DNA of 64,000 nt from Cyathus striatus (taxonomy: Eukaryota; Basidiomycota; Agaricomycetes; Agaricales; Nidulariaceae), in assembly GCA_025738555.1 (NCBI GenBank), contig JAOVFP010000001.1:6634001-6698000 (forward strand). Direction: 5' to 3'. The translations under genes were made by a program, and so were the position numbers. Positions 40,831 to 54,381 of the stretch are shown piece after piece; position 1 is the first letter of the stretch; every line of letters begins with the position of its first letter. The notes under the pieces are model-generated. The model was not told the DNA's origin. It made no database searches and worked only from the letters and a program-made list of their open reading frames with translations.

Positions 40831-41025
40831 ACAGTGTATGGAAAGCCGGAGCACCACGCTCAAAAGCATCAAAATAATTTGAGCTCCGAGCGTCGGCTCC
40901 TCGGCAGCTCGCTTGTGAACCGTCGTCCTCGCTTAAAGATGCAGGGCTTAGATTTATTAATTCGGTACCGAGTATGCTAGTAGTAAACTATAGTACTAAT
41001 GAGTTGACACACTGAGGATCGAACT

Positions 41026-42221
41026 AGGACCCCCCTTAATGCCTGCTAAGGCTGTTTGACTTTCCAGACAAATTTGGGCGAAATTTTGGGGTTAGGCTGT
41101 TTGTTTTCCAGACAAAAGTGACCAAATTAGAGGGTTAGGCTGTTGTAAATTTCCAGACAAATGTCAGTATAGTGGCTAAGGCCATTTGAATTTAGCAGAC
41201 AATATAGGCCAGTTGTTACTGAGAAAAATTTGAGAATATTAAGTACTGGCTGAGAAATCTGAACGTACCTTTAATTGGTTGTCACATTGATTGATATCAT
41301 TGATGCACGATGTACATGATACATGACGCATGATGGATGCATATGGTATGATACATTGATGTATGGCAACTTCAACACACATGTAAAACTTTTACCGGAA
41401 CTCTTATCGACATCTTCTCCAGGTCTTTGCTGTCAGTCTCGACTCTGCCTCTTCTTCTCCTAAGCTATTTGCAGAACTCTATCGTGATCATATCAACTGG
41501 AAAATGGCAGAATCTGTTATTGAGCTCATTACACTCCTAGTATTCAAGGAAAGCGAGTGGATTGGCAAGGGACATCTATACCCACATTACTTACAGTCAT
41601 CTCCCTTTACTTGAAAGGAGGAGGTAAATATGGAAAACATGATTCAATCGCAGAGGTATCCAATATCTGTACTGTTTCATACATGGCAGTGCAGATCTTC
41701 AAGCAAATGCACTTATCTCAGTTCCATGTTATTCCACAAGCAACATCTCTACTTCAAACTAAACAGTTTGTGCTGTTGCCTTCTTCAGCTTTTTTAATCA
41801 CTCTTTCATCACTTCCAACAGTTGCAGAGTGGTCACTGGAACTTTCTCGGGAAGATACTCAGTGCTTTAGTGAGATTAAAAGATCTTTCCCAGTTTTTGT
41901 AGAGGTGGCAAAAGAATTCAAGAAAAGGAGTAAGGCTGCTGTCAGTGTAGATAATGATGTTTAAGCTTCTTTCACTGTGATTATATACACTACGAAAATT
42001 CAGGCGCAATTTTTAATGCTAAAAAGGCCGTTTTAAAATTTCCAGACAAATTTGAACATAAAATAGGCCATTTTAAGTGTCCAGACAAATTTTGAAAAAG
42101 TGCTCCAATGCCATTTTTTTTCCAGACAAAACCGACGAATTTCTTTGATTTTTGTCCAGACAAATCCCACCCCAAATCGACTTTTTTTCAAACGGCCTTA
42201 ATAGGCATTAAGGGGGGTCCT
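41026..42221. mobile_element. hAT-like nested element with 8-bp TSD and subterminal CCAGACA repeats
   Basis: The ends AGGACCCCCCTTAATGCC and GGCATTAAGGGGGGTCCT are perfect inverted repeats. The target duplication is ATCGAACT (41018-41025 and 42222-42229), confirmed by the single ATCGAACT in the uninterrupted right TIR. Four CCAGACAAA-type motifs near each end, all in the same orientation, look like transposase-binding repeats. One open frame (41557-41964) has no recognised motif. An 8-bp TSD suggests a hAT-related superfamily. Confidence 0.88.
41557..41964 (+). CDS. ORF inside nested element, unknown
   Basis: 135 codons (MDWQGTSIPTLLTVISLYLKG... to EFKKRSKAAVSVDNDV). Open throughout and moderately protein-like, but unrecognised. 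It may be a transposase or captured-exon remnant, as no DDE motif is visible. Confidence 0.3.
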   Translation: MDWQGTSIPTLLTVISLYLKGGGKYGKHDSIAEVSNICTVSYMAVQIFKQMHLSQFHVIPQATSLLQTKQFVLLPSSAFLITLSSLPTVAEWSLELSREDTQCFSEIKRSFPVFVEVAKEFKKRSKAAVSVDNDV

Positions 42222-42398
42222 ATCGAACTCAAGACCGCTTGAATGGGTCGGGTAGTAAATTTAGAACGAGTTAATAATAGTTCCAAATATTAATAGCTTC
42301 TCAATTGAACTAGACGCGAAGCACTGATTATCATTGGTAGAAATGTAGATTAGTATTAGTAGTAATTATTGAAATTGACAACTACAGTTATAAACCCT

Positions 42399-42430
42399 AA
42401 GGCCGGCTGTTGCCGGCAAAGCCCACTACC
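42399..42430 (+). repeat. GCCGGC hairpin motif shared with 7713-7746
   Basis: AAGGCCGGC-TGTT-GCCGGCAAAG plus CCCACTA. Same string as at 7713 apart from the loop. Located just inside the left TIR of the transposon, upstream of the first cargo gene. Confidence 0.5.
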
Positions 42431-42633
42431 ACTTTATTGCTGTTACACGTTCTATTTCTATAAAGTAGTAAGGCCAACAAGTGGCAAGTCCTGTTACATT
42501 TAATAAAGAAATAAAGTGGAGTGACAAGCGGCAAGTCCCGATTTTTGTATCAAGAATGTGTGAATGTGTGAATTGATATCTATAATAAGAAGTCAATCGT
42601 TATTGATACTGTTGACTATTGACAACAGCCAGG

Positions 42634-45600
42634 ATGGCAGAGCCATTGATCATTCAATATGACTGTGTGTGTCATGCAGCTTCGCATTGCATATTTGTTG
42701 ATATCAACGACAAACTTCTCTTCAGTTCTCCTTGTCCCTCTGCCCTCTGTCCTTGCAAGAATGCCTGAGCTCGTTGAAGGAAAGGCACATTACATAACAA
42801 CAGTTTGGGGACTGGAACACTATGGAGCTGCCCCCTTCAACTTTGATGTGCTGGGTTTGTGGGCTGATCTGACAGTGGCTGAAGCAAAGGCACAAAAAAT
42901 CAAAATTCGTCTTTTGCAGAAGTTATCATGTACCTCAAGATTTATGCATGGTACAAATTCAGTACAGACTCCTCTGGTGGCAAAGGAACTTCAATTAACT
43001 GCACAAAATCCAAATCCTCTTCCAATTACTTCTCTCAAGATTTGAGGTATCTACTATGCTGTCAAGGCTTTGATCATTGATTTAGGAGAACTCTGGCTGA
43101 AAGTAAGTTTGCATATTATGGTGAATTGTGGTACATAACCAATCTTTGCTTTATAGCTATCCTACTTGACACATACATCGATCCAGATTTATTCTAGAAA
43201 TCATTGGGAGAGCTTGTTAAGAGTACAAAAGGATGTAAGTATTCAATGTTGAGTGCAATATTAAACTCTCTTTAATTTAACTACAGAAGCGAAAATTCTC
43301 TGTTGGACTAGCCATTGAAAGCAACAAATTTGTACTAGCATTTGTCACTCATGATATGTTATTTCAGGTATGAGTAATAAGTACTGTACACTAAATAATT
43401 CTAATTTTAAGAACAATTGTTATAGCCCATTTGGGCGACATCCAAGGAGAGTCTCAGGGCTGAACTGCCATATGTGTACTCAGAATATGACCAATTTCTT
43501 GAAGGTGTAGCCAGTTGGATTCAACATCGATGTGATACAGAATCTCGAATGGAAATAGCAGCTTCTGCTGTTCATGATTCGAAAACAGTGTGGGTTGGGG
43601 TGGGGTCCTACACTGTTAGTGAGATATTTTTTATGGCAGGTGCGATGTATATTGTGAACTTATAGTTAAAAATTACTGATAGCTAGCTCTTGTATAGGTA
43701 TACCTGCATGCCTTTGAGAATGCGATGTGTTTGACAGCCCTTCAAGAACTGCATGTCTATATGAAGCCTATTGGGCCTATGCCCACTGTGCAGAGAGGAA
43801 ACTTCCATAAGTTTGTCTACTTGAGCAAGTAAATATGAATCACTAAATTAATAACTGTTGCTTAAAGAGGTATTCTTCGTCCTGCATGGGATAGGGGCTT
43901 ATTGGCTCCAACAGCTAATGAACAAGTAAGATATCCAAAAAACTTTCTTCACATTTATGGAAAGGAGATTTTACACCTTCCATCTCAGTTGGTTTATTTG
44001 GCGAATCTACATAATGTAAGTTAGTCTTCATTATTATATTGTAAGATGTTGACATTATTTGTTTTTAGGAAAAGATAGAAGAACTGGACCAAATACATAA
44101 AGATGTATGGTACCGTTCTGATTACAACAATGAACTTTCCGATCCATTTGAGCCTTCATACCTCTGGGAAGCACTTAATATGCCATCCAAAGTACATCTT
44201 GGACATCTTATATTTGGGCATATTACATGGCAAAAGATACAATTGCTGTATAAGCTTCCCATTCCCAGTAATTTACACTCCCCCAAGAGGTCTGTACAGA
44301 TCTGTACAGATCCATGCGGATTCTGTGCAGATCCGTACAGACCTGTACAGACCTGTATAGATACCATACAGAATTTATATAGTGGCTATCATTATTATTA
44401 GAGGTGATTATTCTATATGGATTCCATACATATTCTGCATGGATTCTGTGTGGATTCATGCATTGCTGCCTTGTCACAGGTGTCAAGTGTGACACTACAT
44501 GAAATCTATGACACTACATGAAATCTGTGATACACTCAATATATAGTATCATGCTCAATGCATAGTGTCATGCTTAATGTATAGTATCACACTCAATGCA
44601 TAGTGTCACACTCAACACTTAGTATCACACTTAATGTATAGTTTCATGCTTAATGCATAGTGTCACACTCAACACTTAGTATCACACTTAATGTATAGTG
44701 TCATGCTTAATGCAGAGTGTCACACTCAACACTTCATGTCACACTCAATTCTTAGTGTCACACTCAACCCTTAGTGTCACACTCAATGCTTAGTATCATG
44801 CTTAACCCTTTAGTGTCACACTCAACCCTTAGTGTCACACTCAACCCTTAGCGTCACACTTAACCCTTAGTGTCATGCTTAACCCTTAGTGTCACGCTTA
44901 ACCCTTAGTGTCACACTCAACCCTTAGTGTCACGCTTAATGCAGAGTGTCACACTCAACCCTTAGTGTCACACTTAATGCAGAGTGTCACACTCAATGCT
45001 TAGTGTCATACTCAACCCATAGTGTCACACTCAACACTTAGTATCATGCTTAACACTTAGTGTCACAGTCAACCCTTAGTATCATGCTTAACACTTAGTG
45101 TCACAGTCAACCCTTAGTATCACGCTTAACCCATAGTGTCACACTCAACCCATAGTGTCACACTCAACACTTAGTATCATGCTTAACACTTAGTGTCACA
45201 CTCCACCTTTAGTGTCACACTCAATGCATAGTGTCACACTCAACCCTTAGTGCCACACTTAATGCATAGTGTCACACTTAACCCTTAGTATCACACTCAA
45301 CACTTAATGTCACAATCAATGTATAGTGTCATGCTTAAACCTTAGTGTCACACTTAACCCTTAGTGTCACGCTTAATGGAGAGTGTCACACTTAGTGCTT
45401 AATATCACACAATTTTCTATTCTAATTTTCTATAAGGAAATAAGTATAATAAGATTCTGTACAGAATCTGTACAGAATTTTTCAGGTCTGTAGTGCAGAA
45501 TTCTGCGGAATCCACATGGAATTTTTGATTCTGTGCAGAATCTGTGCAGAATCTGTACAGACCCAAAAAAACCTCTGCCAAAAAGAAAAAAATCTGTGCA

Positions 45601-46532
45601 GATTCTGCACAGATTCTGAAAATTCCGCACGGAATCCGTGTGGATCTGTACAGAACACCTGGCTAAGTGTAAAGAGCTCCCCATTCCAAACATGCAAGAT
45701 CCATTAACAAAACTGTTTTGCAATAAAGGTATGCTTCAATGTGTTTTTATTATTACAATTTTACAAATGACTACAGGATATTTGGAAACTCTACCAACAT
45801 ATCTTGCATTTAACATTCAGAACTCTTTAGAGTTTTCAGATTTTAAAGATAGATCTGATCGCTGGCCATTTAAACCTTTTGCATATTCCTCATCTAAAAG
45901 GGGTACTCTTTGGTCATTGATTAATGTCTATCCAGTGAATTCGAAGGCAGATGTAAAGTATGTCAATTTTTTACCCTTAAGTTAAATTTAATTATTTGTG
46001 CCTAATTTTAGTGATACATCTCGTGCTATTCTCAAGAAAAAAACCCCTAAAGCCCATTCCTTTGCAAAAAAGAGTACTAAGAATGGTGTTTCCATTGGAC
46101 CTCTTGAGTACTCTGGTAGTGGAAGAGTCTACAAAGCTGGAAGACGAACATTAAGGTAAATTTGTTCAATTTGATTATGGGCTGTTCTTCCTGGTTCTAA
46201 TTTACTGTGTTTAAAGATTGCCTGTTCATAGCTACTTAAATGCAGAGCTCAGGCCTTCAGATGTTGAGCGCATTGCTTGTAGTGAATGGAGAGCAGAGTT
46301 CAATGAACAAGAAAAGAAGAAAATAGTTAAGAAAGCAGAAAATGAAGGTCGAGAAGTTACTTCTACAGAATTAGAAGCCATTAACTACCTCAAGTTAACT
46401 AACAAGGCAAAACACCAACATGATAAAAGAATAGAAGCTGCACTTCAGGAGCACAGGGAGTTGTTTGGTGATCAATATCCCTCTCTGAATTCCTCTTCTA
46501 CTGATTCTTTGGAACCACCAACCAAAAAGTGA
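42634..46532 (+). CDS. unknown multi-exon protein carried by the 13.5 kb transposon (disrupted)
   Basis: The start ATG at 42634 gives MAEPLIIQYDCVCHAASHCI, followed by a Cys cluster (CPSALCPCKN). The frame then changes to MPELVEGKAHYITTVWGLEH, so either a frameshift or an unrecognised splice lies near 42760. Further exons with GT-AG borders encode KRKFSVGLAIESNKFVLAFV (43290), ASWIQHRCDTESRMEIAASA (43510), YLHAFENAMCLTALQELHVY (43700), RGILRPAWDRGLLAPTAN (43870), and after an insert DRSDRWPFKPFAYSSSKRGT (45850). The last exon has a charged coiled-coil-like region and ends PPTKK*. No family is recognised. It is a conserved-looking cargo gene, interrupted in this copy by 44266-45675. Confidence 0.6.
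44266..45675. mobile_element. minisatellite-bearing insert within cargo gene
   Basis: GCTTCCCATTCC (44254-44265) and GCTCCCCATTCC (45676-45687) flank it. Removal rejoins the coding sequence as YKLPIP-NMQDPL. The ends carry an imperfect inverted repeat (TTTACACTC...GGTCTGTACAGATC versus TTTACACTT...GTTCTGTACAGATCC) rich in palindromic CTGTACAG. The interior is a long 19-20 bp repeat array. A 12-bp duplication is unusual for a cut-and-paste element. Confidence 0.6.
44530..45411 (+). repeat. 19-20 bp minisatellite array
   Basis: About 45 tandem, degenerate copies of a unit close to TTAGTGTCACACTCAACCC, with variants (CATAGTGTCACAC, AATGCAGAGTGTCAC, ATCATGCTTAAC). Higher-order blocks of two or three units recur. 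No coding capacity. Confidence 0.93.
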
Positions 46533-46714
46533 AGGATTAGTGCAGATAAGAGCTTAGTTATATCTGCTATAGAGAATGGAAAGGATAACACAGATATGAT
46601 TCATACTTTATGAGTTCATAAATAGTACTACTTTTGGTAGATATTAACTTTTGTTTGTCATGTAACTATATGTGCATATACTTGCATGTTATTACTGCTG
46701 TCTGAATATAGTTT

Positions 46715-46990
46715 GGATATATAACTTTACTCTAGATGTGATTTTTCAATCAGCATAAGTATGAGGATGGAGCTGTAACATTTATTTCAATGTAATCAGT
46801 CTGTAAACACTGATGTACCAAAGGATATTGGTTTCAGTGAATTATTTCTTATTTCTAACAAGAATTGCTATGAAAAATGCATAGATTGGATACATATCTT
46901 TACCCTGGATGTGTTTTTTCAATCAGCACAAGTGCGAGGAAGGAGCTGTAACATATTTACTTCGATGTAATCAGTCTGTAAACACTGACA
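46715..46990 (+). repeat. direct repeat of ~105 bp downstream of cargo gene
   Basis: 46715-46816 and about 46884-46990 are diverged copies sharing TTTTTCAATCAGCA, GGAGCTGTAACAT and GATGTAATCAGTCTGTAAACACTGA. They lie between the convergent ends of the cargo gene and the transposase gene. Confidence 0.75.
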
Positions 46991-47227
46991 AACATCATCT
47001 TCAAATCATAAGGGGGGGGGTAGGGGAGAGAGAAGGCAGGAAAAACTAGCAAGAGAGAAAAAAGGGGGTGTATGTACAAGATCATACAAGGGGAAAAGCC
47101 AAAATTTTAAATCCCAAACAGGTTACAATGATGTTGTGTCGATTTTATGAAAATTCCTGCCATTTCCATTTCGTTTCACCCCCCAAGACCTTACTACCTA
47201 AAGGTAGTGGGAATAAGTCTATTTCAA

Positions 47228-50200
47228 TTACCATGTACCATCTCCATCACTGTTGTCATCCTCATCTGAAGTAAAGCTAACTTTGATTTCAGGTAAATTA
47301 TTGTCCTCAAAAGGAAGTGGATCGTCAACATCCATCATAGCATCCAGTTCAGCTGAATGAGTTTCATCTGAAATAAATTAATTTCAGCTGAAGAACAAAT
47401 AAAAAAATGGAAGAGATAAGTACTAACCAATTCCTCGGCCATTGTTAACACCTCCCATATAATAAGAACCATCTGATGTTGTATTTTCTATTCCACCTTC
47501 AAGTTCTCGAAGTCCAGGTATTAGTTCATTGTCCATAGTATCATCCTGCATTGATGATTGAATATTATCAGTCCATTGATTGTAATCATTGTGTGGGACT
47601 TCATTTGCTGCCTGGACATCTGTTAAAATCAACAAATAGATGTCCCATACATTGTGTCTTGTAATTTCTGGTGAGTTATGTTGAATATAAATTTCATTTA
47701 TCATATCAGAAAATGACTTGGGAACGAGTTCAAACACTGGGTGATCTGGTGGTGAAAACAAAGCTCATGCCTCTTCAACAGCCTCAGGTTGAACTGATAT
47801 CTACAAATAGTTAGCTGAATGAAGGTTATTTCAGTGCAGATATACATACTTTGAAGTCTAATATGCCATATTCACTAGGATTTAAACAGATGTCATTTGG
47901 AACACCATGTGGAAGGATTTTATTGCAGTCTGCACATTTTGCTGAGTTATTAACTCGATCCTTGTAGGCATCAAGCTCTCCCTGTAACCAAGGAATAAAA
48001 ACCCAACGAAATACCAATCTAAAAAATATTAGCATAGAATAATGTGTGTAAATGAAAGACTAACACCTCTAAAGTGTTATCAGGGTGATACCAATCTTCA
48101 TTAATACCATGATCAAGAATATCTTCAAATCCGGGAGTAAATCTGCGTCGGAGCTGTGACCATGTGATCTCAGGCTTTACATTCTTCTTCTCATGCATCC
48201 AGCAATGTTGGAGTGTTCCCTTGAGTGAAGGATCATGCCAGTGTCTGAGAAATGTATGCCCATTAGCAATTCCAAAATTTTCAGACCCAGGATCACTCTG
48301 AGTAACTAGTGGCATAGCTGTACAATATAAAATTCAATGAGATGCTAAAATAATTCATGAATAGAATAGTTACCTCCAATATCATTAATTGCTTCGAGGT
48401 AATAGCTAAATATTAGTTTTGGATTACTATTGGAGTGCCAAACCTTCAGCCAATGTATCTTTCCAGCAAATGGGTCGATGCCAGTGTGTAGTCCAAGACC
48501 AAATTTATATTTCCATTTATCATGCTGGTCCACCACAAAAATGTCGTTGTGGAGGGAGTAGTTGGTATGCTGGTATAACCCAGTTATATACTTATAAATT
48601 GACTTACTTCGTTCTTTCATCTCTTACCCCTTTATTAATTAATTCTATTTACTTTAATATTCTATATATCCATTTCCATCTTATTATTTTTCTTCTATGA
48701 TGCGCTGTTTGCACAGCGCATCAGGTTTATGTGTTCTCATTCCCTTGTGTAGACTTAGAGACGCGGCGCGGCCTTATCCAAACATTGGGAAGCCGATGCC
48801 AAACAACACGTGACACGTGTATGTGCTGTCACATCTCGCTTACTCTACAATGTGTCCCGCTTACTGCTTCATCGTAATACCTTCTGCTACCACTCTTCTC
48901 ATATTCTCTAGGCCTCCCGTATGTCTCCTCAAGGCCTTTTGGGGCGACGTTCGGACACTCTGGGCATTACATGCCCTTCGGACAGTTTGGAACGCTAGGG
49001 CTTAGGGTTACACCCCCTCTCAAGACCCCTATTTTTCGTCCTCAAGCTACTCGTGTGGTCCTCAAGACCGATATTTCGCCCGTCAAGATATGGTGACCGG
49101 GTCTTTACCCTCATCGTGCGACACTCTGATTGGTGGAAGGACAGGGATTTGGGTCGAGGCACTGGGCTGTTCGTTTTTCCATTCATTCTTTATTTCAAAT
49201 TTACTCTTGATCATGCTTTTCTTTCCTTTCTTTCTTTTATCTGTTATCACCACTTTTGTTTTCTATTACAATACTGTCTAGGCTTATTCATCATCCTTGC
49301 CCCCTCCGATTACTCTGACCGCGAGTGTCCGATGACCGAGCACCCCGCCACTAGTTACGTGTTGTCGAGCCGCAGCTTTGTCCACTGCACAGCTACCTCC
49401 AGGGAGGGTAGTCTTTCGTCATTTTGCTCCAACATAGTACCTGGTAGTAACATCAAGCGAGAGTCGCCATCATCGTTCGCTAGTGTTAGGACCGTCGAGG
49501 TGGTAAGTACTCGTTGACTTGTTTTCCTTAATACGGTCTTGTTCTATTACTTTACAATTCTTACCTTATCACTCTTTTTCTGATTACCCTTCGCTTCCAC
49601 ATTTCAAATTCACGTTCCTTCACGTACCTTACATTTTCTGGGCTCTGGTGACGTGAGAGTACGTGTGGCACTATCCTGTCTCATTGCTGCAAATGTATAT
49701 ACTCGAGGGGTAGAGACTTGAAATTCACCTCCCTTTTCTGACTTAACTTTGCATGCGCTATCGAGCCCCTCGAGCTACTGAGTCTATAGGAAGTGTCAAC
49801 AAAATCTGATTCTCATCCGCTAAGTCTTCTCTAACATTTCTAATTGCTAACTACTCTAGGGTTATCGTAGTTGTTTATTATAGTCAGGTGTGATGCCCGC
49901 CACGCGTCAATGAGTTATCTCCTCCACATCATTAACACCAGCAGACCACCATTTTTTTCTTCTCAGCCTTTGTGCTCGTCGCTGCCTCACAAGGTTGGCT
50001 TCATAGAGAGCAAAGTAAGTTGTAACAACTCTCCTAGATAGAGTGACAGCGATGTAGTTAGAATATAAGATAATTAGTTCATTGACAAACATACCTTGTG
50101 ACAGCCATATTTTCTTCATGAAATAGCAGACTGACCATCTCATGAGCACCAGCATTCGGATATTGAGTGCACAAGTGAATCATGGCTTCATGAATACTTT

Positions 50201-50543
50201 CAACATCGTGGTTTTGCTTCCATGCTTGATATAATCCCATTGTTTCATGAAGTTCCCTGAACCACATCAATCTGAATTATAGATATCTACTTAAAATGAA
50301 TATGACATATGATATAAATAGAAATACTAACCCTAGACCATAGCATGTAACATCCATATGTTGTGTCTGCAGGTAATGGAGTATTACTTTGTCAGAAAGA
50401 CACATCTTCCAGTACCTAAGTATATGCTGTGCAACATCATCAATGGGGGCTATAGAAAGTAGATAAATAAAAATTTGAGTAGAATGATAAATAAACATTA
50501 TGATTGGGTTTGTGTTGATTTTTTGCTTTTGTTCGTGCCATGG
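47228..50543 (-). pseudogene. integrase-like DDE transposase of the 13.5 kb element, split by an insert
   Basis: Minus-strand gene starting at about 50543 (MARTKAKNQHKPNHN) and ending TAA at 47228-47230 in an acidic tail (DEDDNSDGDGTW). The N-terminal DNA-binding-like part contains ESIHEAMIHLCTQYPNAGAH and RRAQRLRRKKWWSAGVND. The DDE core has VVDQHDKWKYKFGLGLHTGI (first Asp), LVTQSDPGSENFGIANGHTF (second Asp) and NVKPEITWSQLRRRF (candidate Glu), a pattern I relate to integrase core (IS3/rve-like) domains. The insert at about 48546-49930 separates WWSAGVND from IFVVDQHDKW, which should be contiguous. An in-frame TGA also occurs near 47768 in the C-terminal part. Confidence 0.78.
48546..49930. 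mobile_element. insertion splitting the transposase gene
   Basis: Its borders are inferred from the break between the two halves of the transposase. Imperfect inverted sequences GTGGAGGAGATAAC and GTGGAGGGAGTAGT sit near the edges. A second, possibly nested unit from about 48701 begins with the palindrome TGATGCGCTG-TTTG-CACAGCGCATCA and ends near 49907. It is more GC-rich than the surrounding element. LTR or TIR class could not be decided. Confidence 0.55.
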
Positions 50544-51315
50544 TATCAAAAAAGAGCAGCTGGTAGAGATAGACTTGTGTTCAGTGCATTACACAATATA
50601 TATATATTCTTGTGGCAACGAGCACTATCTGCATGAGTCAATACTATCATCATGATTACATGTACATAAAAATACTAACTATTCCTGTTAAGTCCAATAT
50701 ACCATATGTATACACATAATGTTATATGTCTTATTTGCATGTATCATTACATTTTTTACATGGTGTAATAATCAAACATTACACATGGTGTCTCAAGCAC
50801 CACAACACCATTGTCTTACCATATCGTTTAGCTAAATAAGTACATAGTAGATACTGAATGCTTATTCTATATTGTCTTCATGCTTGCTAAGGAGACATGT
50901 GCATCTAATTAATTACCAGAGGGATAATCGGTACATGTTCATGCAGAACCTCATGTTCTTATCTGATATATTCTTCTGTGTATTCAGCTCTGAATTCTCA
51001 AGTTTTGCATTGTCCAACAATGACTAATATTGCATATCTCTTGCCTTGCATCTACAAGATATTACTTACCAAACTCCCACAGTTCATTTTGAGACTATGA
51101 TTGTAATTTATACAGCATGTTTTTGATAATTGCGGTCTATGTCATAATTAACATTGATGTAGCTTTACATGTGACTAGTAGCACTATGTACATGAAGTTG
51201 TGTCTGAAATTATAGCATATTCTGAATGTGTAAGTACCATGAATATAAATACTGCGATACACATCAAGTGTATTGTACTTTAAGCAGTCGCTTTATTCCC
51301 TCCATAGTCCGCAAT
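50544..51315. promoter_or_regulatory. intergenic region between divergent transposase and alpha-kinase genes
   Basis: About 770 bp of AT-rich sequence separates the start of the minus-strand transposase from the plus-strand alpha-kinase, so it should hold both promoters. No specific control element is identifiable. Confidence 0.4.
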
Positions 51316-54049
51316 ATGAACATTGGTAATGCTGAAGCCATTGCTCAATTTACAGAGGATGCTCATGCAAATGATCCAGTTCCTTGTGGTAGAAGTAGCT
51401 GCTCAACTATCCTCCTTCCAGGTGACAACCAGCACTATGTTGTGGGGAGTGGTGGTTCTACTGGCAAGTTTGTGTGCAAATCATGTTTTGAGCACTATGC
51501 GAGAAAACCAGATACTATACTAAGTACCTTATATTTTTCTTGTTTGCTATTATGATACTTACGTCTTAATAAATTAGGATCTGACGTTGCCCATAGTTTA
51601 TCCAGTTCAAACCAACAGTCACCTCTGGATTCCATTCTTAGTATGTATAATTCATACATATTTCTATATTGTGAAGAGCACTAAACAATTGTAATTTCAG
51701 GTCCAGCTGTTGCTCGTCAGCGAGATGCTGCAAATAATGTTGACATCAATTCCATTAGAGTATCTGTAAATCGAGCACAGAGAAAAGGTTAGATCCAATG
51801 TGTATCATCTCAGTATAACTTAGCTAATATCATATTTAGATTCAGATTTTCTTGCATGAAAGGTAACTCCACTATTGAACGGATTGCCCACAATAGGAGT
51901 ACCAAGTGCATGGTCTTCAAGCAATAGAACTTCAACTACTTCACAGAGATTAATGGCCACTGGATATTCCAGCTCACATTCTCTCTACAATGCAGAGCAA
52001 GACAAGTATTGATGTCTTTGCTATCAGTCAAATAACCAGTCCAAAACAATTAGTATATTGATTCAGGTTGTATGTGAGGTGTCTGGAAAGTCAAAACCCG
52101 AATTAATTTTGGTTTGTTATTTAATATAACTTGAAACTATATTATTTTCTAAAAGACTTGTACAGAATCTTCAAGAAGGGCATCAAAATGTTCCAGCAAT
52201 GTTGACACCCCCAGAGCTAAGACAGCTGGTGGAAGACACTATGTACTCTAAACTTCGGAAGGAAACACATAACTTCCCATTTGAAAGACATATGCTTACA
52301 ATATGTGAGCTTTCTACTTGGACAGATCTTTCACTTGAAATACAGGATCAGCCATACTTCTATTCTCGCTGTTTTGCTGAAGGAAAGGGAAAAGACAAAA
52401 AGAAAGTCTTTAAAAAACCTTCTAAACCCTTCATATTAGCACTAGTTATTCCAGCGAAGCTGTGGGATAAATGCTTGGACTATATTATTGAAAAGGAGGT
52501 ACGATATTCATTTATTACTTCAGATCTTGACTGATATTAAATATGAATGATTATCTCAGGAGACTAAGGTATGTTTTGATTTTAAAATGCAATCTGGTAA
52601 TGTCTGACCAAGATAAGGATCAACAGAACGATTTTAATATACCTGCACAGTTCACTGAAATGGATATAAACTCAGTAATTAATAGTGCTGGTTCCATTAA
52701 CACACCTCATCAATCATCTGAGACAAGGAAGCGGGCACGTACAGTAAGATTTATCTTATGTTATTCAATTCATATTACTCATTTTATATAGAATACACAG
52801 GGCTCAGATTTATCTCCTACATCAACACCAGCAAAAAAGTGTGTCCAAATGTCAACCGTTTATGTATCACCTGATAGGGAAAAGATCTGGGAAGCACTGA
52901 AATCAGGTGGATTGGTAGCTAATCTTCAAACACAATCCAGTAAGTCAATTAAAATATTGTTCTATTTTATGCACTTATGATTTGACTTGCTTAAGTGAAA
53001 AATATTGTGGAGCAAATCCAGTTTTATGCAATACCTGATATCAGCTTAACAGAGCTACTCACTGACTCTGCTTCGAAGTCATTTGTGCTCTCTGATCCAC
53101 ATCCAGGTGTTCTATCAATTGATCATCTGGAAGCACTGGGAATTGGAGCCTGTAAAATGGCTCACAAAGGACAGCTCACTATCACTCCTTTAGCAAAATC
53201 GGGTCTTGGTGACATTTTAAATCAAGCTGTTGCTGTCAAGCGCATCTACTATCCAAGAGATTTGAAGGGAAGAAAGAAGAGTAGGAACGATTCTCAGCCT
53301 AGTTTTTCAATTGGGCGTTTTGCAGTCAAATCAGAGCTTGAAAAGACTCTAGTTGAAGCAAATGTTTTTTACTGGGCCACATTGCTGCTATCTCACACTT
53401 ACTCATACATCTCTCAGGTGATTTCAGCAAAAGGGTTGCCTTCATTTGAAATTCCTGAGCTCCGCTTCATAAAGGCAGGTGTAGCAATTGTTCATGATTC
53501 CACAGCTACCAAATCTGGGGGAAAAACAACAACAATGTGGAGAGTCTATCTGGTTGAGGAGTTGATTGAAGATGATGGAGGAAATACTGAATTCATCAAA
53601 TTCATACACAACGGTTCTGCAAAACCATTACTTGCAGAAGTGGACCCACTTTACTCTACTGCCAAGTTTTTATCTTTTACTCAACATGTGCAATACAATA
53701 AAACAGGTGGATTGGTGTATATTTCTGATCTTCAAGGTATGTACCTACAATTATGACAACTCAGTGGAATTTTGACACTGTGCAGGAAGCTTGACACTGT
53801 TCTGACCCACAGATCATGACTGCACTGTGAGTACATTTATGTACAAAAATTCAATGTTCCCCCTTAATAATTTTTTACTACAGACTTCTCGAGGACAAAG
53901 CAAATTTATTTGGTGGCAGAAATATTGGCTCTGCGTTTGATAAATTTTCATCGGAGCATACCTGCAATAGATACTGTCATTGGTTCGACCTTGATGAACT
54001 AAACTTAGATGTTACACATAGTATTCCAGTTGTAGAGTCCGATGCCTAG
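51316..54049 (+). CDS. alpha-kinase with Cys-rich N-terminal region, transposon cargo (probably damaged)
   Basis: Atypical serine/threonine protein kinase of the MHCK/eEF2K (alpha-kinase) family. The N-terminal exon (51316-51523) has CGRSSC and CKSCFEHY, a possible zinc-binding pair. Middle exons: PPELRQLVEDTMYSKLRKET, then an Asn/Ser-rich linker. The kinase domain (52995-54049) shows AVAVKRIYYP (ATP-binding Lys), KSELEKTLVEANVFYWATLL, ELRFIKAGVAIVHD, YLVEELIEDDGG, NKTGGLVYISDLQG, DPQIMTA, NLFGGRNIGSAFDKF and the closing metal-site motif EHTCNRYCHWF. Two lesions are suspected: a TGA near 51860 in a short exon, and a 2-nt deletion near 53790 between DLQG-SLTL and DPQIMT. The stop is at 54047-54049, 24 bp before the right TIR. 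Confidence 0.78.
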
Positions 54050-54072
54050 ATACTGCATTGTTTCCTTTCGTC

Positions 54073-54375
54073 TACCTATGACAATCAGCGAGTACTTTGC
54101 ATCTAGTTCAATTGAGAAGCTATTAATATTCAGAGCTATTATTAACTCATTCTAAATTTACTACCCGACCCATTCAAGCGGTCTTGAGTTCGATCCTCAG
54201 TGTGTCAACTCATTAGTACTATAGTTTACTACTAGCATACTCGGTACCGAATTAATAAATCTAAGCCCTGCATCTTTAAGCGAGGACGACGGTTCACAAG
54301 CGAGCTGCCGAGGAGCCGACGCTCGGAGCTCAAATTATTTTGATGCTTTTGAGCGTGGTGCTCCGGCTTTCCATA
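54073..54375 (-). repeat. right TIR of 13.5 kb transposon
   Basis: Uninterrupted counterpart of the left TIR. It contains the sequence GATCGAACTCAAGACC (as reverse complement), which is the empty target of the nested element in the left TIR. It starts about 24 bp after the alpha-kinase stop codon. Confidence 0.9.
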
Positions 54376-54381
54376 ACAGTG

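What the first reader, a model, noticed from the sequence alone, without database searches (positions are those of the whole stretch)
40837..54375. A 13.5 kb DNA transposon carrying an alpha-kinase and an unknown protein beside its DDE transposase
Sequence shows ~300 bp terminal inverted repeats (outer 180+ bp identical), TATGGAAAG...CTTTCCATA ends, and ACAGTG on both sides. Between them are three multi-exon genes: unknown (+), integrase-like DDE transposase (-), alpha-kinase (+). The alpha-kinase stop lies 24 bp from the TIR, so it is an integral part of the element and not a bystander. A protein kinase as standard cargo of a cut-and-paste transposon would be unusual and might link transposition to host signalling, and could help explain alpha-kinase expansion in mushrooms. 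The IS3EU assignment (6-bp TSD, 5'-TAT, IS3-like core) is my inference.
Basis: partly seen in the sequence, partly recalled or inferred. Interest (0 to 1): 0.9.

Follow-up and report, generated by a model that had tools for sequence, protein, structure and literature searches.

The report
Mushroom transposon carrying kinase and glycosylase
This is a worn-out copy of a mushroom jumping gene whose family carries, beside the gene for its moving enzyme, a gene for an alpha-kinase relative, and this branch has also picked up a gene predicted to make a DNA-repair-type glycosylase that would probably help the element escape silencing by DNA methylation.

The parts
40831..40836 (.). left target site duplication ACAGTG
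40837..41024 (+). outer left TIR, TATGGAAAG end, 100% complementary to the right TIR
41025..42222 (.). nested insertion splitting the left TIR: TAGGACC...GGTCCTA ends, TCGAAC on both sides; absent from the C12 copy
42223..42325 (+). inner part of the left TIR, 93% complementary to 54091-54194
42761..46532 (+). gene 1, predicted Fpg/Nei-type DNA glycosylase homologue (starts MPELVEGKAHY); broken by an in-frame stop and by an insertion
44266..45674 (.). nested insertion rich in 19-bp tandem repeats inside a gene 1 exon; flanked by a 13-bp near-identical repeat; absent from this place in the C12 copy
47228..50541 (-). DDE transposase gene, PF24764 (rva_4) integrase-core family by its homologues; interrupted
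48548..49927 (.). 1.38-kb insertion in the transposase gene, absent from the C12 copy
51316..54049 (+). alpha-kinase gene, head to head with the transposase gene; by my reading this copy carries a stop and a small frameshift
54091..54375 (-). right TIR, CTTTCCATA end
54376..54381 (.). right target site duplication ACAGTG

Best explanation
The 13.5-kb stretch is a decayed copy of an IS3EU-like cut-and-paste DNA transposon whose core is two head-to-head genes, a DDE transposase and an alpha-kinase homologue, to which this subfamily has added a gene predicted to encode an Fpg/Nei-type DNA glycosylase. Shown by calls: the borders, the 6-bp duplications, the unoccupied paralogous sites, the divergent pairing of transposase and kinase at most loci of this transposase clade in this genome, and dN/dS well below 1 for the kinase between families. 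Inferred: the transposase (invariant D, D and E in its relatives) cuts at the TIRs and inserts with a 6-bp stagger; the kinase is a second gene of the element, probably made from the shared intergenic region at the same time as the transposase, and likely phosphorylates the transposase or a host factor so that transposition happens in the right place or phase; the glycosylase would excise modified cytosines (5-methylcytosine products) from the element's DNA and so slow silencing and C-to-T decay, the part proposed for TET/JBP in other IS3EU elements. The window copy can hardly do this alone, because nested insertions split one TIR, gene 1 and the transposase gene.
For: Borders; exact 6-bp TSD in 10 of 13 elements and in three more. 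Unoccupied sites. Kinase as core gene: 36 of 43 transposase loci with a kinase within 15 kb, 36 of 36 upstream and opposite, median gap 3.2 kb; TIR-bounded families with transposase and kinase and no gene 1 match: C21 (7,321 bp), L045 on C10 (about 7.2 kb), C12b (gene 1 hits are listed). Other mushrooms: for 6 of 15 kinase relatives a listed transposase relative comes from the same species and a contig of the same length, in Tephrocybe rancida with adjacent locus tags DXG01_005695/005694. Selection: catalytic-exon kinase dN/dS 0.10-0.19 in 15 of 15 between-family pairs. Kinase identity: PF02816 precomputed for 11 of 15 relatives, 5 of 7 tested here over cut-off, DLQG / DPQIMT / HxCNxFC segments kept, profile hits to eEF2K, TRP-channel kinase and MHCK-A, best E 9e-10 to 1e-8. 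Glycosylase fold; M1-P2-E3-x-x-E6 invariant in the 6 of 14 members that I picked for a complete start, as in MutM MPELPE. Methylation-type decay: 166 of 208 differences between window and C12 copies are transitions in CpG-type context. Published precedent for the pairing: PMC12730594 (passages, discussion part 1 of 2).
Against: Seven of 43 transposase loci lack a listed kinase; rechecked, C19 holds kinase sequence and C17 an N-terminal kinase exon, C13 and C3 show none within about 6 kb, three were not rechecked. A second set of 27 PF24764 loci has no kinase near (0 of 27), so the pairing is clade-bound. Gene 1 sits beside this transposase at 2 of 15 loci only (a third lies 10 kb from a transposase of the second set), and both copies are broken. 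Sequence support for Fpg/Nei is weak, and the H2TH profile finds nothing in this genome although it rings in 9 of 14 controls. Element C17 gave no TSD; L023 none. A shorter kinase segment gave between-family dN/dS of 0.06-0.35 with some pairs undefined. No activity was tested.
Confidence: 0.75

Rival explanations
1. The kinase is passenger cargo captured from the host once and carried along without a role in transposition.
For: A kinase-only derivative exists (L034: TIR-bounded, TSD GATTCG, only the C-terminal half of a kinase), and short derivatives exist without any of the genes.
Against: Same position and orientation in 36 of 36 pairs, dN/dS 0.10-0.19 between families with dS 0.84-2.6, and the same pairing in TET+ IS3EU.
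Confidence: 0.15
2. The kinase acts on the host rather than on transposition: as an eEF2-kinase-like enzyme it changes host translation or stress signalling so that element-carrying cells fare better.
For: The closest solved structures by profile include eEF2 kinase.
Against: Near copies show relaxed dN/dS, 0.37-0.73, so no sign that the host keeps single copies; kinases sit beside transposases family by family.
Confidence: 0.2
3. Gene 1 keeps an Fpg/Nei-like fold but is only a DNA-binding protein (for example a TIR binder), not an active glycosylase.
For: By eye, the residue where MutM has Lys57 is variable after the conserved R-G (alignment A3); the four Exidia/Auricularia members read M-S/C-P-E.
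Against: The N-terminal Pro-Glu used in the chemistry (recalled) is invariant in the 6 picked members.
Confidence: 0.3
4. The region is a chance pile-up of unrelated mobile pieces between two inverted copies of a short repeat.
For: The stretch does hold three nested insertions, and the outer 78-81 bp are shared with many short elements.
Against: A collinear full-length copy on C12 with its own 6-bp duplication and without those insertions at those places; [15 protein letters not shown].
Confidence: 0.02

Closest known systems
TET+ IS3EU transposons of fungi (Kojima 2025, PMC12730594; passages, discussion part 1 of 2)
   Same: 6-bp TSD, TAYGG..CCRTA ends, TIRs over 30 bp, transposase and alpha-kinase genes in opposite orientations
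   Different: No TET/JBP gene seen here (own-genome TET search silent, but silent in its controls too); mushroom host; an Fpg/Nei-like gene on the far side of the transposase, not between it and the kinase
IS3EU/GingerRoot superfamily in general (PMC10045372, passages)
   Same: TA..TA termini, usually 6-bp TSD, integrase-like DDE core
   Different: The passages seen name no alpha-kinase; no Repbase sequence was at hand to place the transposase on their tree
Alpha-kinase family (PF02816: eEF2K, TRP-channel kinase, MHCK-A)
   Same: C-terminal catalytic segments match by Pfam and PDB profile
   Different: Extra N-terminal C..C / C..C segment and a conserved middle region for which Pfam named no domain in the 7 relatives scanned
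Fpg/Nei DNA glycosylases (MutM, NEIL1)
   Different: About 640 aa against 269 for MutM; identity 11-17% in the rows shown; not reached by family HMMs at cut-off

Membership tests
IS3EU/GingerRoot | 6-bp target site duplication | tested here: met
   Exact in 10 of 13 elements (L022 has 5 bp, L023 none, L024 an eroded end), plus CTAACC, GATTCG, CATTCG; C12b 5 of 6 bases and C17 none; C2 and C11 not resolved
IS3EU/GingerRoot | TA..TA termini, in fungi TAYGG..CCRTA | tested here: met
   TATGG...CCATA in window and most copies; the C12 right end reads CCCTA, L024 is eroded, C17 ends otherwise
IS3EU/GingerRoot | TIRs longer than 30 bp | tested here: met
   189 bp perfect, about 285 bp in all
IS3EU/GingerRoot | transposase falls in the IS3EU clade of a transposase tree | not testable with these tools
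   No Repbase sequences held; homologues carry PF24764 and invariant D, D, E (24 sequences)
Alpha-kinase (PF02816) | family profile over its curated cut-off | tested here: met
   Homologues P0001, P0003, P0004, P0009, P0013 over cut-off; P0002 no hit, P0005 below; the window exon alone below cut-off, 16.6 against 21.3 bits
Alpha-kinase (PF02816) | kinase activity | not testable with these tools
   Only segments such as DLQG, DPQIMT and HxCNxFC were read in the alignment; their role is recalled
Fpg/Nei DNA glycosylase | two-domain Fpg/Nei fold | tested here: met
Fpg/Nei DNA glycosylase | N-terminal Met-Pro-Glu with catalytic Pro and Glu | tested here: met
   M1 P2 E3 E6 invariant in 6 of 6 members picked for a complete start; of the other 8 of A3, P0138 has it, the rest are cut, differently annotated or M-S/C-P-E; MutM MPELPE; window MPELVE
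Fpg/Nei DNA glycosylase | H2TH motif by sequence | tested here: inconclusive
   hhalign to MutM E 0.0064 but probability 5.9%; Pfam H2TH E 0.12 in 1 of 14; TIGR00577 fpg E 0.036 in 1 of 14; no H2TH hit in the genome, split by introns or too diverged
Fpg/Nei DNA glycosylase | base-excision activity | not testable with these tools

The most novel reading that the evidence does not exclude
Mushroom IS3EU elements run a private signalling and anti-silencing kit: an alpha-kinase that switches their own transposase on, and, in this subfamily, a MutM/NEIL1-type glycosylase that cuts methylated or oxidised cytosines out of the element, an independent answer to the TET/JBP cargo of other IS3EU elements and a direct counter to CpG decay.
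Probability: 0.3. Interest if true: 0.88.

Novelty: new variant of a known kind. Interest (0 to 1): 0.64.

Why it matters
It turns a passing remark about TET-carrying IS3EU transposons into a near-rule for one transposase clade of a mushroom genome: the alpha-kinase is a core gene. It could explain where many fungal alpha-kinase genes come from: 35 of the 52 loci found with a mushroom transposon-kinase homologue lie next to such a transposase. Alpha-kinases are reported as highly expanded in rusts (PMC4469406, passage). It also offers a testable example of a transposon with a base-excision-type gene in a lineage whose relatives carry TET/JBP enzymes.

Tried and rejected
Window exons alone in Pfam gave almost nothing, because introns cut the domains. 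A simple spliced-gene script gave wrong models, so I read exons by eye. The kinase structure model is poor (pLDDT 59) and was not searched. TET/JBP in the own genome: no match, but the control was silent too, so nothing follows. Transposase relatives in viral contigs: 77 pattern matches, none confirmed. The transposase profile hit no PDB chain at E <= 1. Among the 11 PDB hits of the kinase profile two are designed proteins, taken as noise. Gene 1 copies outside the element (L035/L038, L036/L039) are duplicated segments with sharp edges but no TIR that I could find in the stretches fetched; their carrier is unsolved. The VIA list covers only model residues 1-466; the rest of gene 1 is barely tested. 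A pile-up of unrelated pieces was rejected by the C12 copy.

Literature. Searches (alpha-kinase with transposon, transposase, basidiomycete expansion, mushroom) listed 2, 3, 3 and 2 papers; PMC12730594 is the only one that I saw describe the pairing. Of PMC5295586 and PMC4469406 I saw one passage each; two others were judged by title. One search (IS3EU, fungi) listed 17 papers; I opened PMC12730594 (outline, passages, legends, discussion part 1 of 2) and PMC10045372 (passages) and left the other 15 unread. Searches (11 listed; none; 3; 3) were judged by titles and abstract starts and showed no paper on an Fpg/Nei gene in a fungal transposon. Of PMC5566547 I saw title and abstract start.
Full report
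What is there. The window lies at C1:6634001-6698000 of a 107-Mb genome in 24 contigs. The closest database proteins to kinase and transposase come from the bird's-nest fungus Cyathus striatus (86% identical; 72%), so the host is probably a relative of it (inference). The left TIR looks shorter only because a 1.2-kb element with its own 6-bp duplication sits in it.

Other copies. The outer TIR found 40 matches, 40 of 197 candidates having been scored. A full-length copy on C12 (11,831 bp, TSD AAAAGG) is collinear and about 97-98% identical in most shared parts; it lacks the three insertions of the window copy at those places but has a tandem-repeat insertion of its own downstream of gene 1. 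C19 (7,508 bp, TSD GATTAG) has transposase and kinase but no gene 1 match; C11 has transposase and kinase, rearranged; C2 has a left end and a kinase piece. Ten short elements (1,966-4,920 bp) that share the outer 78-81 bp match none of the three genes. The flanks of the window element, joined without the element, match five unoccupied paralogous places on C1.

The kinase is a core gene. I searched the own genome with the transposase (150 of 184 matches were printed; 43 loci after merging) and with a Mycena kinase, P0004 (75 matches, 52 loci). 36 of 43 transposase loci have a kinase within 15 kb; two of these are pieces beside the same kinase, so 35 kinase loci are involved. Each lies upstream of and opposite to the transposase; the median gap is 3.2 kb, and about 1.5% of the genome lies that close to a kinase. 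Of the seven without, C19 does hold a kinase and C17 an N-terminal kinase exon; C13 and C3 show none within about 6 kb; C1:2234201, C7:1253374 and C11:309137 were not rechecked. The core form is TIR, transposase, kinase, TIR: C21 (7,321 bp, TSD CTAACC), L045 on C10 (about 7.2 kb, TSD CATTCG) and C12b (TSD 5 of 6 bases); gene 1 has no match at these places, and I did not search them for further genes. C17 has long inverted repeats but I found no TSD. Of the 17 kinase loci without a listed transposase I fetched one (L034): a 4.3-kb TIR-bounded derivative with TSD GATTCG and only the C-terminal kinase half.

Limits of that rule. The Pfam model PF24764 finds 27 further loci, none among the 43, and none has a kinase within 15 kb, so the rule holds for one transposase clade. 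PF02816 finds 35 kinase loci, 19 of them beside a transposase of the 43. Eleven of the 35 are not among the 52, so 35 of 63 kinase loci found by either query are linked to this clade.

Other species. The database search returned 15 kinase relatives and 479 transposase relatives, of which 120 were listed. For 6 of 15 kinases a listed transposase comes from the same species and a contig of the same length: Mycena belliarum, M. galopus, M. capillaripes, Tephrocybe rancida, Suillus cothurnatus and Pleurotus pulmonarius; for 9 of 15 none of the listed ones does. In T. rancida the locus tags are adjacent. I could not fetch fungal DNA from other species.

Selection and decay. In the catalytic exon, kinase dN/dS (Nei-Gojobori) is 0.10-0.19 in 15 of 15 pairs between families and 0.37-0.73 in 6 of 6 pairs among window, C12, C19 and C11; the latter include frameshifted copies. 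A shorter middle segment gives 0.06-0.35 between families, some pairs undefined. The three transposase segments give 0.03-0.20 between families, a few undefined (all). So the kinase is kept while families are active and decays in dead copies. Window and C12 differ at 208 of 9,493 aligned sites; 199 are transitions and 166 are in CpG-type context; for window and C19 it is 338 of 5,623, 293 and 193. This fits deamination of methylated cytosine (inference).

Gene 1. It is not standard cargo: 15 loci in the genome, three of them short fragments, two beside this transposase, a third 10 kb from a transposase of the second set. Its 14 database relatives carry no Pfam domain at cut-off. A model of P0136 (pLDDT 75.8) matches Fpg/MutM and NEIL1, and the members with a complete start begin M-P-E-x-x-E as MutM does. 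NEIL1 is reported to excise 5-carboxylcytosine directly (PMC5566547, title and abstract start). Kojima's paper argues that TET/JBP cargo of fungal transposons counters methylation (PMC12730594). Together these make an anti-silencing glycosylase the most attractive reading; it is not tested, and both element-borne copies here are broken.

How it compares. IS3EU features tested here (6-bp TSD, TAYGG..CCRTA, long TIR) are met; tree placement is not testable here. The divergent transposase and alpha-kinase pair is in print for TET+ IS3EU. New here, as far as searches show (limits under Tried and rejected), are the near-constant pairing in a mushroom genome and, by searches, the Fpg/Nei-like cargo.

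Noticed in passing
41025-42222: Nested 1.2-kb element with TAGGACC...GGTCCTA ends and a 6-bp TCGAAC duplication; by TSD length and TA..TA ends it may itself be an IS3EU-like non-autonomous element.
   Followed up: no
44266-45674: Insertion made largely of 19-bp tandem repeats; similar arrays occur in or near other copies of the element at other places (C12, C11, C2).
   Followed up: partly
48548-49927: 1.38-kb insertion in the transposase gene, TG start, possible 5-bp duplication GTCGT/ATCAT; may be a solo LTR.
   Followed up: no
L035, L036, L038, L039: Fpg/Nei-like gene 1 relatives in duplicated segments (pairs about 98% identical) away from the listed IS3EU-like transposases; one pair differs by what looks like a lost intron. 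Their carrier is unknown.
   Followed up: partly
L034:4255-8568: TIR-bounded 4.3-kb derivative with TSD GATTCG that keeps only the C-terminal kinase half; five other kinase loci begin at the same residue (414) of the query, so it may be a multiplied kinase-fragment family.
   Followed up: partly
own genome, 27 loci: A second group of PF24764 transposases without alpha-kinase nearby; ends and cargo unexamined.
   Followed up: no
C1:6736170-7230189 (L040-L044): Five diverged copies (76-83%) of the sequence in which the element inserted, spread over about 500 kb of C1.
   Followed up: partly
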